This document shows, piece by piece, positions 42,674 to 48,242 of a stretch of DNA of 64,000 bases. Made by a program: the position numbers and the translations under genes. The notes beneath the pieces were generated by a model. That model saw nothing but the letters and a program-made list of their open reading frames with translations, ran no database searches and had not been told where the DNA came from. The stretch lies in NCBI GenBank assembly GCA_026002855.1, contig BPGD01000001.1, positions 1,329,972-1,393,971 on the forward strand. Reading direction: 5' to 3'. The DNA is from Bryobacteraceae bacterium. GTDB lineage: Bacteria; Acidobacteriota; Terriglobia; Bryobacterales; Bryobacteraceae. Numbering within the stretch: the stretch's first letter is position 1; every line of letters begins with the position of its first letter.

Positions 42674-43759
42674 TTGAGCGGGAATCTGCCACTGTTCGAG
42701 TCCGAAAACTCGAAGCCGCCGCTGGCCGGACGGACCTCTGCTGCGGATACCGCGATGCGACTTCTCGCCGAAAGCCCCGCGCCGCTCAGCCCGGCGCAGA
42801 TCCGCAGGCTCTGGCCGGCCCGGCCGGCGCCGAAACCCGCCGCTGTGGAGGCGGCCCTCGAAGAGCTTGCCGCCAGGGGCGAGGCCGCGCGGCTCCAGGC
42901 AAAGAGCGGCAAGACGCTCTGGAGCGCGCGGCGGCTGGAAGACTGGCTGCGCCAGGCGCGGGAGCGGATGCTCGAGGCCGTCCGGCAGGCGCCGGCGCCG
43001 CTCAAGGAAAAAGAGCTGCTGACGGCCGCGGCCTGGCCGAAGGAGCTCGACGGGCGTCCCGCGCTCGAGCTGATCCGGCAACTGCAGACCGACGGTGCGC
43101 TGAAGGCGTGGTCTGGCAAGACGCCGGCCTACTGGCGGCTGAGCCCGGAAGAAACGGCGCCGGAGGCGCTGCTCGAGTCCCTGGGCAACCGCGCGATGAG
43201 CCGCGCCGACTGGATGCGGCAGGCGAAGGCACGGCTGAAGGGCGTCAGCCGCGACCGCTGGGAGCGCGCAGCGGCCGACCTGGTGGCGCAGGGGCGCGTA
43301 TTTCAATACACGCTGCGCATCGACGGTAAAAAGGTGGAGGCCTGCGCGCGGGCCGAGCACCGCAGGGCGTTCCTGGAACTCTACCGCCCGATGCTCGAAC
43401 GGCTGAAGGACGAATGGCGCCGGCTGGGCGCGAGCGAGGAGCAGATCGAGAGTTTCCTGGCAGGCAAAGCGGCTGGATCGGCGGCCACGCTGACGGCGGA
43501 AGAGCTGTTGCTCGATGAGCTGAAGCGGATGGAGCAGGAAACTCCTTTGCCGATCCCGGTGATCTCTCTGCGCGCGCGGCCAGCGCTGCGCGGACTGACG
43601 AAACAGGAGTTCGACCGCGCCGCCATGGAGCTGTTCCGGCGGGGCCGCATCTACATGGCGCCGCACGATCACCCCTGGCGGCTGCCGGAGGCGGAGCGCG
43701 AGGCGCTGGTCCATGACGGAGAGAGGAACTTTTATGTCAGCGTCACCGCTCGCTCTTGA
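42674..43759 (+). CDS. Tandem winged-helix protein (first gene of nuclease-translocase operon)
   Basis: 361 residues from TTG at 42674, which has GGGAGGAGAGG directly upstream; ATG at 42653 lacks a ribosome site. I recognise at least three, probably four, winged-helix units. They are near residues 25-80 (PLSPAQIRRLWPARPAP, then VEAALEELAARGEAARL), 100-155 (PLKEKELLTAAAWPKE, ALELIRQLQTDGALKAW), 165-225 (SRADWMRQAKARLKGVS, RDRWERAAADLVAQGRVF), and 295-361 (RARPALRGLTKQEFDRAAME, LFRRGRIYM). There is no enzyme motif. Such repeats suggest DNA binding or a scaffold that selects or opens DNA for the next two proteins. The stop overlaps the second gene's start by 26 nt. I cannot name the family. Confidence 0.85.
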   Translation: MSGNLPLFESENSKPPLAGRTSAADTAMRLLAESPAPLSPAQIRRLWPARPAPKPAAVEAALEELAARGEAARLQAKSGKTLWSARRLEDWLRQARERMLEAVRQAPAPLKEKELLTAAAWPKELDGRPALELIRQLQTDGALKAWSGKTPAYWRLSPEETAPEALLESLGNRAMSRADWMRQAKARLKGVSRDRWERAAADLVAQGRVFQYTLRIDGKKVEACARAEHRRAFLELYRPMLERLKDEWRRLGASEEQIESFLAGKAAGSAATLTAEELLLDELKRMEQETPLPIPVISLRARPALRGLTKQEFDRAAMELFRRGRIYMAPHDHPWRLPEAEREALVHDGERNFYVSVTARS

Positions 43760-45548
43760 GCTGAAGGGCATCCCGAACCCGTTCCGCAGCGGAATCACCC
43801 GCGATGCGTGGGATCCGGAGTGGGTGGACGTGGCGGAGATTCACGCGGAAATCTCCGCGAGGATCTGCGCTGAGGTGGAAACCATCCGCCAGCATGGCGG
43901 CAGCCGGGGCGTGCTGGTGTTTGGCGAGCCCGGCAGCGGCAAGACGCACCTGTTGAACCGTCTGCGCTCCTGGTGCCTTCAGAACGGCGCGCTGTTTTCC
44001 GGCTTCCGGCTCCAGTGCGCGCCGCAGACCATCTGGCGGCACCTGCGGCGCGAGTTCGCCGGCGACCTGCTGCACCCTTTGCCCGGCGGGACACGGCAAC
44101 TGGACGTCCTGCTGAATGCCGGCGAGGACCGCATCCGCCAGACGTGCAGTTACGCGCCAGCCACCGTGCTCCTGCACCTGAGAGAGGGAAGATTCCGGCG
44201 CGAGGGCGAAGCGTGGCTGCGCGGAGACCTGCTGCCGGACTCGATCCTTGAAGACATGGGAATCACCGACGGCGGAGAACTGGAGGAAGAAGCAGAGGAC
44301 GAAGCCCGACGGATCCTGCTGGAACTGATCGCGCTGGCCGCCCCCACCCCCGTGGTGATGGCGCTCGATCAAATGGAGGCGATGATTCTGGACTCTTCCG
44401 ACCTGCGTCCTCTATGGGCGTTAGGCGCGGCGGGGGCTGCATTGCGCGACGAGTCCGCGAACCTGGTGCTGGTCACCTGCGCGCAGACGGGGTTTCTCGA
44501 CGTGCTCCACCGCGGTTTCCGTCATGCGGAGATGGACCGCATGGGAGAGGTCCGGCTGGAGCTGTACCCGCTGGATGTGGAAGCCGCGCGGCGCCTGCTG
44601 GCGGCGCGGATGGATGCGGAGCCCGCCCTGCGGGATCACCGGTATCGGAAGAGGCAGCCCCTGTGGCCGTTCACCGAATACGCCGTGAAGCATCTTCTGG
44701 TCCCGCAGGGCCGAGTCGTGGCGAGGAGGCTGATCTATGCCGCGCGGGATCTTTTTGAGGAACTTCGCGGCTTGAAACCGGCCCGGTCCCCCTTGGACGC
44801 AGCGCGTTTCCTGGACGCCGAGCTCCGCAGCAGGAGGGAGGGCGCCTGCGACCGCAGGGATTGGACGGGCAACGAATTTCTGCTGGACGCCGTGCAGCGG
44901 GTGATGCCGCTGGCCGGATGGAAAAGCATGGAGCCGCGCCCGCAGGGCGTGGATCTGCTGCTCGAGAAAGACGGCCGGCGGCTGATGCTGGTGATGTTCA
45001 ATCAGGCAACGATGCATGGCGCGGCGCGGAGACTGGAACGGCTCGCCCGGCTGGAGCAACCCCGCCAGCTGCGGCTGCTGCGCGCCACCGGGTTGCCGAT
45101 GGGCCGGCGCGCGCCGAAAACGGCCGACCGTCTGGCGCAGCTCGAAGCGAGAGGCGCACGGATGGTGCGGCTGTCCCGGGAGACGATGGCCGCCCTGGAG
45201 GCCTGCCGCACGCTGCTGGCCGACGCAGCCGCCGGCGACCTGCATGTGGACGGCGAGACGCTGGGACGGGAGTTCGTTGAGCAGTGGCTGCGCGAGCGGT
45301 TCCCGCAGGAGCTGCGGGACTGGCTGGAGGGACTGGAACCGGGCGCGGCCCCTGCCGGCGGCGACGAGGCCCTGATGGACGCGCTGGTCGATTGCGTCCG
45401 CCAGGAGAAGGTGATCCCGGTTGAGGAGGCTGCGCGGCGGCTGGGCTGCGGGGCCGAGGAGGTGAGGCGCTGTGCGCGTCAGACTCAGGATGTGGTGGCC
45501 GCCCTGGGCGAGCCGCCGCAGGTGCTTTACGAGCGCCTCGGCGGATGA
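43734..45548 (+). CDS. AAA-type ATPase with an unassigned mid domain and C-terminal winged helix (second gene of the operon)
   Basis: 604 residues. ATG at 43734 has AGGA 7 nt upstream; the ATG at 43713 is less likely. The N-terminus GIPNPFRSGITRDAWDPEWV is followed by the P-loop VFGEPGSGKT (Walker A 64-71) and a Walker B of the form VVMALDQME, Asp 212 followed by Gln, not Glu. This is similar to ORC/Cdc6-like and STAND-type regulatory ATPases. A second compact region, GVDLLLEKDGRRLMLVMFN at about 405-423, resembles the core strands of a PD-(D/E)XK fold without obvious catalytic acids. The last 60 residues, CVRQEKVIPVEEAARRLGCG, look like a winged helix. Its start overlaps the end of the first gene, and its stop is 7 nt before the third gene's GTG. 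Confidence 0.88.
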   Translation: MSASPLALELKGIPNPFRSGITRDAWDPEWVDVAEIHAEISARICAEVETIRQHGGSRGVLVFGEPGSGKTHLLNRLRSWCLQNGALFSGFRLQCAPQTIWRHLRREFAGDLLHPLPGGTRQLDVLLNAGEDRIRQTCSYAPATVLLHLREGRFRREGEAWLRGDLLPDSILEDMGITDGGELEEEAEDEARRILLELIALAAPTPVVMALDQMEAMILDSSDLRPLWALGAAGAALRDESANLVLVTCAQTGFLDVLHRGFRHAEMDRMGEVRLELYPLDVEAARRLLAARMDAEPALRDHRYRKRQPLWPFTEYAVKHLLVPQGRVVARRLIYAARDLFEELRGLKPARSPLDAARFLDAELRSRREGACDRRDWTGNEFLLDAVQRVMPLAGWKSMEPRPQGVDLLLEKDGRRLMLVMFNQATMHGAARRLERLARLEQPRQLRLLRATGLPMGRRAPKTADRLAQLEARGARMVRLSRETMAALEACRTLLADAAAGDLHVDGETLGREFVEQWLRERFPQELRDWLEGLEPGAAPAGGDEALMDALVDCVRQEKVIPVEEAARRLGCGAEEVRRCARQTQDVVAALGEPPQVLYERLGG

Positions 45549-45555
45549 GGGGGCC

Positions 45556-47439
45556 GTGGAGCAGGACGCCGTGTCCCTGACGGTTTCCGAGATCCGGCGG
45601 GAGATCTGGCGCGCGGCCGGCGGGGCCGTGGACGAAGGGGCCGGTGCTGAAGCGGGCCGGCTGTTCCATCGGACGGCGGCGGAAGCGTTGGGCGGGGACT
45701 CGCCTGCGGCCTGGTTCCACCACTTCGACGCGGAAAGCCTGCATCGGTTGGAGGCTGCCGAAGACTATGCGCGCGCGCTCTATGAACATGAGCTGGGGCC
45801 CGCACTTTCCGCCCAGGACGCGGCCTTCCATGCCCGCCCGGAGGCGCTGCTGCGCCTCTGGCAGGGCGTGCGCCATTTTGCCGCCTGGCTCGTGGGCGCG
45901 CTGCGGGAATGCGAGGCGCGCGGCGTCATTGGCTGGAACGGCCGCAGCGGATGGCGGGGCGCGGAGTCGGTCGCGCGGACCGAGGTCCCACTGGTCTGGC
46001 GCGTGCAGCGGCCCGGCTGGCGCGCGGCCGTGGAGGTGAATGGCACGCTGGATGCGCTGTGGCGCGACCCGGCGAGCGGCCGCTGGTGCGTTGTGGAATG
46101 GAAGCTCGCCTCCACCGCGCCCGAGGCCGATCTGATGCAGCTGTGCCTGTACTCACTGATGCTTGAAACCGGCAGCGAGCCGGGCGCGGCGGCGCTGGTC
46201 CATTTCGACCCGGCGCCGGCGCAGACTGTTCTGGACGCCGCACAACTGGAGCCGTTGAAGGAAAAGATCGTCGATCTGATCGGCCGGCTGGCCGGCGTTG
46301 TCGGCGCGCCCCTGCGGACGGCGCTGCAAGCGCCACAGCCCGTGCCGCGCCCGGCCTTCATCCCCTCCCTGCGCGACCAGGAGCTGGCGCGGAAGACCAT
46401 CGAGGTGCTGCGGGCGCGGGGCCATGACGTCGAGCTGGGCCCCGGCCTGGCGGCCGGGCCGGCTTTCCTGCGCGTGCCGGTGCGGCTGGCGCCGCGTTCG
46501 AGCGTGCGCCGGGTGCTGGCCGAGGCCGATAACCTTCAGGTGCAGCTCGGGCTGGCCACGCGGCCGTTCCTGCGCAAGGGCGAGGGTTGCGTCCTGGTGG
46601 AAGCCCCCCGCGCGCAGCGCGAGACCCTCTACTTCAACGCCGTGGATTTCTCGCGCGCCGCGGATTTCACCGCGCCGCTGCTCGTGGGCGTGGATCTGGG
46701 CCTTGTGCCGCACTTCGCCGACCTGGCCCGGCCGCAGACGCCGCACCTGCTGGTGGCGGGCTCCACCGGCAGCGGCAAGAGCGAGTGGCTGCGCACGGCG
46801 CTGGCCAGCCTGATGGCCACGCACACGCCGGCCGATCTGCGCGTCGTGCTGATCGACCCGAAACGCACCGCCTTCGGCGAGCTGCGCGGATCGTCCTACC
46901 TCTGGCCGAAGCTCGGGCTGCTGCTGCCGCCCGACGACGACATGACGGCGGCCTTCGACACACTGATCGAGGAGATGGAAGAGCGCTACCGCGCCTTCGA
47001 CCGGCAGGGCATCGCCGCGCTGGCCGGGTGGCGCGCCGAGGCCGGAACAAAACCGCCCAGAATTGTTGTTTTCTGCGACGAATACGCCGACCTCGTCCAC
47101 AGCGCGGCCGAGCGGAAAGAGCTGGAGAAACGCGTGGCGCGGATCGGCGCGAAGGGCCGCGCCGCCGGCATCCACCTGGTGCTGGCCACGCAGCGGGCCA
47201 GCCGCGACGTGGTGACGGGCGTCATCAAGTCCAACCTCACCGGCCGCGTCTGTCTGCGGGTGGCGGAGGCGATCGAGTCGCGGCTGGTGCTGGGCGCGGC
47301 CGGGGCCGAGGACCTCACCGGCCACGGCGACCTGCTGTGGTCCGACGGCAGCGAGCCCGTGCGCCTTCAGGCACCGCTGCTCGATGAAGAGTCGCGCCGC
47401 CGGTTCTTCACGCCGGCGCGCGCGGCGGGAGGGCGTTGA
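45556..47439 (+). CDS. RecB-like PD-(D/E)XK nuclease fused to an FtsK/SpoIIIE DNA translocase (third gene of the operon)
   Basis: 627 residues from GTG at 45556 (GAGGGGG upstream). Residues 1-260 are a RecB-family nuclease: GRLFHRTAAEAL (His 38), GTLDALW (Asp 166), CVVEWKL (Glu 181, Lys 183) and QLCLYSLML (Gln 195, Tyr 199). The rest is an FtsK motor with an alpha-like segment and Walker A GSTGSGKS (402-409), Walker B IVVFCDEYADL (Asp 508, Glu 509), LATQRASRDVVTGVIKSNL, and the IESRLVLG...GHGDLLW end. It has no FtsK transmembrane domain and no gamma DNA-orienting domain, so it is cytoplasmic. The predicted action is translocation on double-stranded DNA with end or strand cleavage. The stop overlaps the folP ATG by one base. 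Confidence 0.9.
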   Translation: MEQDAVSLTVSEIRREIWRAAGGAVDEGAGAEAGRLFHRTAAEALGGDSPAAWFHHFDAESLHRLEAAEDYARALYEHELGPALSAQDAAFHARPEALLRLWQGVRHFAAWLVGALRECEARGVIGWNGRSGWRGAESVARTEVPLVWRVQRPGWRAAVEVNGTLDALWRDPASGRWCVVEWKLASTAPEADLMQLCLYSLMLETGSEPGAAALVHFDPAPAQTVLDAAQLEPLKEKIVDLIGRLAGVVGAPLRTALQAPQPVPRPAFIPSLRDQELARKTIEVLRARGHDVELGPGLAAGPAFLRVPVRLAPRSSVRRVLAEADNLQVQLGLATRPFLRKGEGCVLVEAPRAQRETLYFNAVDFSRAADFTAPLLVGVDLGLVPHFADLARPQTPHLLVAGSTGSGKSEWLRTALASLMATHTPADLRVVLIDPKRTAFGELRGSSYLWPKLGLLLPPDDDMTAAFDTLIEEMEERYRAFDRQGIAALAGWRAEAGTKPPRIVVFCDEYADLVHSAAERKELEKRVARIGAKGRAAGIHLVLATQRASRDVVTGVIKSNLTGRVCLRVAEAIESRLVLGAAGAEDLTGHGDLLWSDGSEPVRLQAPLLDEESRRRFFTPARAAGGR

Positions 47440-48242
47440 TGGCGCGCACGCTGGTGATGGGCATTCTGAACGTCACGCCGGACTCGTTTTCCGACGGCGG
47501 GCGCTTCGCCACGCCGGACGAGGCGGTGGAAGAGGCGCGGCGGCTGATTGCCGAGGGCGCCGACATCATCGACGTAGGCGGCGAGAGCACGCGGCCGGGC
47601 GCGCACCCGGTGCCAGAGGACGTCGAGCTGGAGCGCGTGCTGCCGGTGGTGGAGCTGCTGGCGCTGGACCCGCGCGTGCGCGTGTCGATCGATACGATGA
47701 AGCCGCGCGTGGCCGCGGCCTGTCTGGAAGCGGGCGCGACGCTCGTCAACGACGTCAGCGGTCTGGCAGATCCGCAAATGGCGCGCGTGGCTGCGGCCGC
47801 CGGGGCGGGCGTCGTCATCATGCACATGCGCGGCACGCCGCAGACGATGCGGCAGCACGCCGTCTACCGGGACGTGATGCGCGAGGTGATCGAGGAGCTG
47901 CGGCCGCGCGTGGAGCGGGCGCGCGGGGCGGGAGTCCGCGAAATCTACGTCGACCCGGGCATCGGCTTCGCCAAGACCCCGCCGCAGAGTTTCGAACTGC
48001 TGCGGCGGCTGGGCGAGCTGCGCGAGCTGGGCTGCCCGATCTTGATCGGGCCCTCGCGCAAATCGTTCCTCGGCGTGCTGCCGGGAATGGAGGACATCAG
48101 CGAACGGCTGGAGGGCACGATCGCGGCGGCGGTGATTGGCGCGATGAACGGGGCGTCGATCGTGCGCGTCCACGACGTGCGCCCGGTGAAGAAGGCGCTC
48201 AGCGTGGCAGACGCGGTGCGGGGCGAGATATGGACAAGGTGA
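47439..48242 (+). CDS. folP: Dihydropteroate synthase
   Basis: A 267-residue TIM barrel that joins p-aminobenzoate to dihydropterin pyrophosphate; the sulfonamide target. Motifs: MGILNVTPDSFSDGG, DVGGESTRPGA, VNDVSGLADP, YVDPGIGFAKTP and IGPSRKSFLG. ATG at 47439 shares its A with the stop of the nuclease-translocase gene (TGATG). It begins the folP-folB-folK set. Confidence 0.96.
   Translation: MARTLVMGILNVTPDSFSDGGRFATPDEAVEEARRLIAEGADIIDVGGESTRPGAHPVPEDVELERVLPVVELLALDPRVRVSIDTMKPRVAAACLEAGATLVNDVSGLADPQMARVAAAAGAGVVIMHMRGTPQTMRQHAVYRDVMREVIEELRPRVERARGAGVREIYVDPGIGFAKTPPQSFELLRRLGELRELGCPILIGPSRKSFLGVLPGMEDISERLEGTIAAAVIGAMNGASIVRVHDVRPVKKALSVADAVRGEIWTR

What the first reader, a model, noticed from the sequence alone, without database searches (positions are those of the whole stretch)
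42674..47439. Uncharacterised three-gene operon: tandem winged-helix protein, AAA ATPase, RecB-nuclease/FtsK fusion
Three overlapping or nearly touching genes encode a tandem winged-helix DNA-binding protein, a regulatory AAA-type ATPase with a C-terminal winged helix, and a protein joining an intact RecB-like PD-(D/E)XK nuclease (Asp 166, Glu 181, Lys 183) to an intact FtsK/SpoIIIE motor. I cannot match the combination to a named system such as HerA-NurA, BREX, Dnd/Dpt, Wadjet, Zorya or Gabija. No integrase, transposase or phage gene is next to it. A DNA recognition, translocation and cutting machine for repair, chromosome dimer handling or defence is the most economical reading.
Basis: partly seen in the sequence, partly recalled or inferred. 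Interest (0 to 1): 0.88.

Follow-up and report, generated by a model that had tools for sequence, protein, structure and literature searches.

The report
ORC-like ATPase with nuclease-FtsK motor operon
Three neighbouring bacterial genes look like a machine that binds DNA, loads a ring-shaped motor and pulls DNA into a nuclease, probably to destroy invading DNA; gene sets of this kind were predicted in 2024 and I found no experiment on them.

Summary
42674-47439 encodes (1) a protein modelled as four winged helices, (2) an Orc/Cdc6-type AAA+ ATPase with a degenerate restriction-nuclease-like domain and a C-terminal winged helix, (3) a RecB-type nuclease fused to FtsK alpha and beta motor domains. 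The host is apparently a Bryobacteraceae (Acidobacteriota) species. 27 of 200 family genomes carry the ATPase; 23 of 28 loci show all three genes, always in one order. The genes vary together but hardly with the host's Ffh, as if the operon moves between genera. Best reading: genes 1 and 2 recognise DNA and load the nuclease-motor ring, which pumps and cuts it. Seen here: intact nuclease residues in 23 of 24 members, one natural variant lacking both the WH gene and five nuclease residues, and WH-ATPase pairs without nuclease or motor in another phylum. Against defence: no defence island seen, no plasmid, phage or viral relatives, and a fixed place within the genus.

The parts
42674..43759 (+). 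Gene 1: multi-winged-helix protein, 361 aa; model shows winged helices at about residues 23-84, 88-154, 158-226 and 275-330
   Evidence: Translation; AF2 mean pLDDT 91.6, pTM 0.65; five Foldseek matches at E <= 0.001: RNA polymerase III winged-helix subunits and SelB (low TM-scores). The count of winged helices is my reading of the printed secondary structure.
43734..45548 (+). Gene 2: Orc/Cdc6-type AAA+ ATPase (604 aa from ATG 43734; ATG 43713 is also in frame) with a degenerate PD-(D/E)XK-like domain and a C-terminal winged helix
   Evidence: Pfam AAA_16/AAA_22; Foldseek best match Orc1 2v1u 1.3e-6, 25 of the 30 matches at E <= 0.001 are ORC/Cdc6/OCCM chains
44859..45248 (+). Degenerate (inactive-looking) REase-like domain inside gene 2, about residues 376-505 (numbered from 43734)
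   Evidence: Order helix-strand-strand-helix-strand-helix-strand-helix; no E-x-K in residues 400-430 (the strand pair) in 41 of 41 aligned ATPases, three rows have an E-x-K elsewhere in the domain. Assigned by topology and position; no fold search of the domain alone.
45556..46410 (+). Gene 3, N-terminal part: RecB-type PD-(D/E)XK nuclease (H38, D166, E181, K183, Q195, Y199)
   Evidence: PDDEXK_1 5e-9 over residues 31-246; conservation
46411..47439 (+). Gene 3, C-terminal part: FtsK alpha and beta motor domains, Walker A GSTGSGKS, Walker B VVFCDEYAD; ends with the beta domain
   Evidence: FtsK_SpoIIIE 4.2e-31; profile positions 261-617 of 622 align to residues 81-459 of solved FtsK 2IUU, E 3.4e-80

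Best explanation
The operon is a chromosomal Orc/CDC6-coupled 'HerA/FtsK capture' system: a standalone restriction-type machine against invading DNA. Proposed working: the multi-winged-helix protein binds DNA and delivers it to the Orc/Cdc6-like ATPase, which assembles around duplex DNA with its dead nuclease domain and C-terminal winged helix as extra DNA contacts. This complex loads protein 3 as an FtsK-type ring. The ring pumps double-stranded DNA, and the RecB-type nuclease domains at its face cut what passes, as HerA with NurA do as two proteins. Shown here: domain content, intact catalytic and ATPase residues, conserved gene order, joint variation of the genes, purifying selection, and a pattern of spread that does not follow Ffh. 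Inferred: the loading step, ring formation, nuclease polarity, the defence role, and how self DNA is spared (no modification gene is in the operon).
For: Feature-by-feature match to the published class. ATPase in 27 of 200 family genomes, leaving out two marginal partial hits of the 29 listed. All three genes, same order and strand, in 23 of 28 loci. ATPase and nuclease-motor distances correlate (Spearman 0.63, Mantel p 0.001, 17 genomes) while Ffh correlates weakly with either (nuclease-motor 0.16, ATPase 0.20; p 0.11 and 0.07; without the same-genus genome 0.13 and 0.15, p 0.22 and 0.14); e.g. G129/G250 nuclease-motor 74%, Ffh 73% identical; the nearest relative by nuclease-motor differs from that by Ffh in 10 of 16 genomes. 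Nuclease and motor residues conserved. dN/dS 0.10-0.38 in nine operon comparisons. Related WH-ATPase cores occur with FtsK-type and with HerA-type motors, as the 'capture' idea expects.
Against: No experiment. Among 123 ORFs beside 19 loci, the 25 of 48 PADLOC families printed at E <= 1e-10 were one RTasHel, 23 GajB models each hit by one member, and mad3 hit by two: no recurring defence neighbour (23 families not printed; some ORFs were picked on the wrong strand). No ATPase relative in plasmids, phages or viral contigs, nor of the nuclease in plasmids. Fixed place in the genus: both flanks shared in four of five genomes, the fifth contig starts inside gene 1. In 6 of 16 genomes the nearest relative by nuclease-motor is also the nearest by Ffh, as vertical descent would give. 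Within the genus folB and folK are about as divergent (64-79%) as the operon proteins (49-74%). WH-ATPase pairs without nuclease or motor exist. L050 keeps open frames although five nuclease residues are changed.
Confidence: 0.6

Rival explanations
1. A DNA-end-processing repair machine: the FtsK-type ring and RecB-type nuclease resect double-strand breaks, like HerA-NurA or AddAB, with the Orc-like protein as loader.
For: Motor-plus-nuclease layout as in HerA-NurA; the nuclease is of the PDDEXK_1 group, found also in 850-1170 aa proteins across the family, AddB-like by size and my recollection; kept in five of five genomes of the genus examined.
Against: Patchy: 27 of 200 family genomes. PDDEXK_1 proteins occur in 195 of 200 family genomes, and carriers G149, G109, G165, G036, G105 and G125 have ones of 888-1171 aa besides the operon's, so the operon does not stand in for them. 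Operon proteins are far more divergent than Ffh across genera (34-44% against 75% mean identity).
Confidence: 0.15
2. A plasmid or replicon control system: the Orc-like and WH proteins recognise replication origins or replicating plasmid DNA and the motor-nuclease destroys it.
For: Orc/Cdc6 fold and several winged helices suit origin or replication-intermediate recognition; the authors of PMC10853773 propose interception during segregation, transfer or packaging.
Against: No sequence evidence bears on the target. It overlaps with the best explanation and differs in target only.
Confidence: 0.15
3. A settled chromosomal DNA-organising or regulatory system in which the WH-ATPase pair is the functional core and nuclease activity is secondary.
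For: ATPase without motor or nuclease-motor in 12 of 15 fetched loci of another phylum, 8 with a WH-profile match beside it; L103 has the ATPase alone; L050 lacks the WH gene and five nuclease residues but keeps open frames.
Against: In the host family 23 of 24 aligned nucleases keep all six residues. In four of the 12 loci little downstream of the ATPase is on the contig (L116 and L121 under 0.2 kb, L118 1.3 kb, L122 1.2 kb).
Confidence: 0.1

Closest known systems
Orc/CDC6-coupled HerA/FtsK capture systems (PMC10853773; section 22 read in full, passages elsewhere)
   Same: Orc/CDC6 AAA+ with an inactive REase domain between core and C-terminal wHTH; active-looking nuclease; HerA/FtsK motor with FtsK-alpha; separate divergent multi-wHTH gene; proposed counter-invader role
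   Different: The paper's main text has no 'Acidobacter', 'Bryobacter' or 'Solibacter' and no 'RecB'. It places the active REase in two families, one shared with AbiJ; whether our RecB-type nuclease is the other is open. Its supplement was not read.
DndFGH / DptFGH / SspFGH
   Same: C-terminal motor resembling SspH (PADLOC SspH 3.1e-48 over residues 386-613); an ATPase partner and a multi-wHTH partner (the latter from PMC10853773)
   Different: Gene 3 is 627 aa and matches only the motor end of the 1561-1766-position SspH models; no SspF match for the window ATPase (one of 25 relatives at 0.022)
HerA-NurA
   Same: Ring translocase of the FtsK-HerA superfamily coupled to a nuclease
   Different: One polypeptide; PDDEXK_1 nuclease, no NurA match listed at E up to 1; extra Orc-like and WH proteins
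BREX and BREX-related capture systems (PMC12839542; passages read)
   Same: ORC/Cdc6-type ATPase plus multi-wHTH protein, in some with HerA/FtsK
   Different: None of the three genes is PglZ or a methyltransferase; no BrxC match for the window ATPase, though four of 25 relatives match weakly, best 1.5e-5
Cellular FtsK/SpoIIIE
   Same: Alpha-beta motor homologous over about 350 positions
   Different: A nuclease in place of the N-terminal membrane region (recalled for FtsK); ends with the beta domain; 25 system and 25 cellular motors fall on two sides of one branch (SH-aLRT 100, quick tree with long branches)

Membership tests
Orc/CDC6-coupled HerA/FtsK capture system | Orc/CDC6-family AAA+ ATPase | tested here: met
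   25 of 30 Foldseek matches at E <= 0.001 are ORC/Cdc6/OCCM chains (TM-scores normalised to the query 0.2-0.3); Walker A and D/E of Walker B in 25 of 25
Orc/CDC6-coupled HerA/FtsK capture system | Inactive REase inserted between AAA+ core and C-terminal wHTH | tested here: met
   Topology and position in the AF2 model; no E-x-K in the strand pair in 41 of 41. Not confirmed by a separate fold search.
Orc/CDC6-coupled HerA/FtsK capture system | Active REase of one of the two families of the paper | tested here: inconclusive
   Active-looking PD-(D/E)XK nuclease, PDDEXK_1/RecB-like; which of the paper's families it equals could not be checked
Orc/CDC6-coupled HerA/FtsK capture system | HerA/FtsK motor, one set with FtsK-alpha | tested here: met
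   Alpha and beta domains align to 2IUU; best PADLOC match SspH
Orc/CDC6-coupled HerA/FtsK capture system | Separate fast-evolving gene with 2-4 wHTH domains (in a subset) | tested here: met
   Four winged helices in the model; mean identity 26%, against 34% ATPase, 37-38% nuclease, 48-49% motor
[quoted passage not shown]
   No DptG or SspB family among the PADLOC matches of 22 members at E up to 0.1; that PADLOC holds fitting models was not checked, and distant kinship would be missed
Orc/CDC6-coupled HerA/FtsK capture system | Mobile gene neighbourhoods | tested here: inconclusive
   Distances do not follow Ffh and none of 11 window flanking genes lies beside it in six other genera; but it is fixed in the genus and no integrase or transposase is among the 25 of 135 Pfam families printed for the neighbours
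Orc/CDC6-coupled HerA/FtsK capture system | Defence against invading DNA | not testable with these tools
   A prediction in the paper as well
DndFGH/SspFGH | Large DndH/SspH-type multidomain protein | tested here: not met
   Gene 3 matches only the C-terminal motor end of the SspH models
BREX | PglZ and methyltransferase with BrxC | tested here: not met
   None of the three proteins is one; flanking genes were named by eye only
HerA-NurA | NurA-family nuclease | tested here: not met
   PDDEXK_1 and no NurA match listed

The most novel reading that the evidence does not exclude
The WH-ATPase pair is an exchangeable bacterial counterpart of the eukaryotic ORC-Cdc6 loader: it licenses DNA and loads whichever FtsK/HerA-type ring it is paired with. 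Here the ring carries a nuclease, so the operon would be an origin-licensing scheme turned into a DNA-destroying one. The pair standing alone in another phylum, the ATPase fused to FtsK- or HerA-type motors elsewhere, and the joint absence of the WH gene and nuclease residues in one lineage would all follow.
Probability: 0.2. Interest if true: 0.75.

Novelty: new member of a known kind. Interest (0 to 1): 0.45.

Why it matters
The class was predicted in 2024 from sequence, and my searches showed no experiment on it. This version is compact (three genes, about 4.8 kb), has intact active sites and comes with natural variants (nuclease residues changed and no WH gene; HerA-type motor; ATPase-motor fusions; WH-ATPase pairs alone). 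It is a convenient subject to test whether an ORC-like ATPase can load an FtsK-type ring and whether such a machine blocks phages or plasmids.

Tried and rejected
Rejected: membership in DndFGH/SspFGH, BREX or HerA-NurA (see membership test). A role standing in for AddAB-type repair: PDDEXK_1 proteins are near-universal in the family (195 of 200). Wadjet, Zorya and Gabija were not tested separately; the PADLOC tables for the three window proteins list none of them.

Led nowhere: plasmids and phages and viral contigs (40 pattern matches, none a relative). Neighbour scans showed no recurring defence or mobile family among the rows printed. No empty site: all five genomes of the genus carry the operon, and in 25 folP loci of other genera (L166-L190) neither the operon nor the galU/kinase genes match within about 1.5 kb of folP. 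The third structure search and Rfam were not used.

Rows dropped or limits: two partial hits (G261, G113). Alignments A1-A3 hold 24, 25 and 22 full-length or nearly full-length rows. One search leaves out eight near-duplicate or same-genus rows (L041, L043, L044, L084, L090, L094-L096). One search uses 17 of the 20 genomes. Neighbour scan: 19 of 28 loci, ORFs picked by a codon-position G+C rule, some plainly on the wrong strand. Searches scored only 3 and 4 candidates per genome at E <= 1e-8, so distant relatives may be missed. In one search, 15 of 16 genomes were fetched (not G904, a 160-aa frame). One search listed 15 of 19,524 papers and one search listed 20 of 28.

Names of flanking genes (ffh, rpsP, galU, a GHMP-type kinase, folP, folB, folK, ispF, ispD; thyX and htpG in relatives) are read from translations or recalled, not from a family search.

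Full report
What is there. Window 42674-47439 (+) encodes a 361-aa multi-winged-helix protein, a 604-611-aa AAA+ ATPase and a 627-aa nuclease-motor. Genes 1 and 2 overlap by 26 nt, genes 2 and 3 are 7 nt apart, and the stop of gene 3 shares one base with the ATG of the next gene (read as folP). There are no tRNA genes in the window. G+C here is 0.67-0.72, the upper part of the window's range of 0.63-0.72. The genome is one 4.44 Mb contig with one copy of the operon. Groups are told as codes only.

Protein 3. Pfam finds PDDEXK_1 and FtsK_SpoIIIE. A profile of 24 relatives aligns at positions 261-617 of 622 to residues 81-459 of solved FtsK 2IUU, that is alpha and beta domains, with no room for a further C-terminal domain. 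E181 is conserved in 24 of 24, H38, D166, K183, Q195 and Y199 in 23 of 24, the one exception each time being L050.

Protein 2. AlphaFold2 (25 rows, mean pLDDT 90.3) and Foldseek give an Orc/Cdc6-type fold: best match Orc1 2v1u (1.3e-6), 25 of 30 matches at E <= 0.001 ORC/Cdc6/OCCM chains; TM-scores normalised to the query are low (0.2-0.3). Between AAA+ part and C-terminal winged helix lies a domain of restriction-endonuclease-like topology. It has no E-x-K in the strand pair in 41 of 41 aligned sequences; three have one elsewhere in the domain. PADLOC matches of relatives are weak and of many kinds (mad8 in 19 of 25, best 1.7e-5; Avs2 in 14; BrxC in 4, best 1.5e-5; DpdH in 1, 5.2e-5), as P-loop proteins give.

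Protein 1. AlphaFold2 (22 rows, mean pLDDT 91.6, pTM 0.65) shows three winged helices in a row, a helical linker and a fourth. The best Foldseek matches are RNA polymerase III subunits and SelB. Pfam and PADLOC matches of relatives are scattered and weak.

Distribution. In 200 family genomes 29 match the ATPase; two are marginal, so 27 count (not all 200 are complete). In 28 loci from 26 of these genomes (the window's own not counted), the ATPase is in 28, the nuclease-motor in 26 and the WH gene in 24; all three are in 23, always in one order and strand. The other five: L090 and L092 start inside the ATPase; L097 ends inside it and has no WH match in 4.3 kb upstream; L050 has no WH match (a gene read as thyX is there); L076 has no nuclease-motor match in the 1.3 kb left. 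In a phylum draw of 396 genomes 3 besides G000 match at 1e-8: G668 has all three genes (L102); G415 has a WH protein, the ATPase and a protein P0004 with a HerA-type motor by Pfam and an N-terminal part resembling our nuclease by a weak profile match and by eye (L104); G617 has the ATPase alone (L103). In the phylum of G711 (record titled 'Proteobacteria bacterium'; phylum name not told) 16 of 299 genomes match. Of 15 loci fetched, 12 show the ATPase without motor or nuclease-motor by my profiles; the WH profile matches next to it in 8, an ORF of similar size stands there in three, and one starts at the contig end; the downstream side is short in four. L125 has the ATPase fused to an FtsK alpha-beta motor with a WH gene upstream; L129 and L130 have it fused to a HerA-type motor.

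Evolution. 25 system motors and 25 cellular FtsK rows fall on two sides of one branch (SH-aLRT 100; quick tree, several long branches). The four parts vary together: Spearman 0.32-0.64, Mantel p 0.001-0.011 in six comparisons of 15-16 loci. ATPase and nuclease-motor correlate with each other (0.63, p 0.001) but not significantly with Ffh (0.20 and 0.16, p 0.07 and 0.11; 17 genomes). By nearest relative, nuclease-motor and Ffh agree in 6 of 16 genomes and differ in 10. This fits spread of the unit between genera with vertical descent among close relatives; fast evolution alone could also blur the signal. dN/dS is 0.10-0.38 in nine operon comparisons and 0.09 for folP (dS up to 1.0). Within the genus the operon proteins are 49-74% identical to the window's, most neighbours 84-100%, folB and folK 64-79%; both flanks are shared in four of five genomes and the fifth contig starts inside gene 1. 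In six other genera none of 11 window flanking genes is beside the operon.

Literature. Five searches ran (one search found nothing; 52 and 70 list a part of what they found). PMC10853773: section 22 in full and passages; it describes this class from sequence and proposes a counter-invader role. PMC12839542: passages only; it notes that HerA/FtsK with ORC/Cdc6-type ATPases, fast-evolving wHTH proteins and nucleases recur in anti-invader systems. Other papers were seen in listings only. The library holds open-licence PubMed Central papers, so an experimental paper elsewhere is possible.

Judgement. What it works like: most likely a loader-motor-nuclease machine acting on duplex DNA. What it is: a member of the Orc/CDC6-coupled HerA/FtsK capture systems in the four structural features tested and met, with two open (nuclease family; kinship of the WH gene). 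Whether it defends, and against what, is not shown; the lack of a defence island in what was printed, the lack of plasmid, phage and viral relatives, and the fixed place in the genus speak against a highly mobile defence cassette.

Noticed in passing
L050:7322-11027 (G021): Variant with five of six conserved nuclease residues changed (positions 38, 166, 183, 195, 199), the motor's Q546 changed as well, and no WH match upstream, yet open frames.
   Followed up: partly
L116-L124, L126-L128 (phylum of G711): ATPase genes, most with a WH gene beside them, without motor or nuclease-motor; their nuclease-like domain is degenerate as well.
   Followed up: partly
L126:2110-3060 (G788): An ORF just downstream of the ATPase looks by eye like a small PD-(D/E)XK protein (Rpn-like, recalled); not tested.
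   Followed up: no
L091:2038-4076 and L092:1328-3305 (G250, G236): Second copies of the operon in genomes with another copy; the nuclease-motor gene is split over two frames (decay or assembly error).
   Followed up: no
L083:10435-10815 (G225): A second, partial motor match (profile positions 511-617) lies 1.7 kb after the operon near the contig end.
   Followed up: no
L103:8732-10909 (G617): ATPase gene with neither WH nor nuclease-motor match nearby; its C-terminus carries a run of short near-identical repeats.
   Followed up: no
window 47437-47441: The stop of gene 3 and the start of the next gene (read as folP) share a base, so the folate genes may be on the same transcript; a second, distant folP-like match lies at G000:C1:1547253-1548023 (31% identity).
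   Followed up: partly
L179, L181, L182 (G1024, G1023, G1025): folP matches in three genomes of one genus each contain one in-frame TGA.
   Followed up: no
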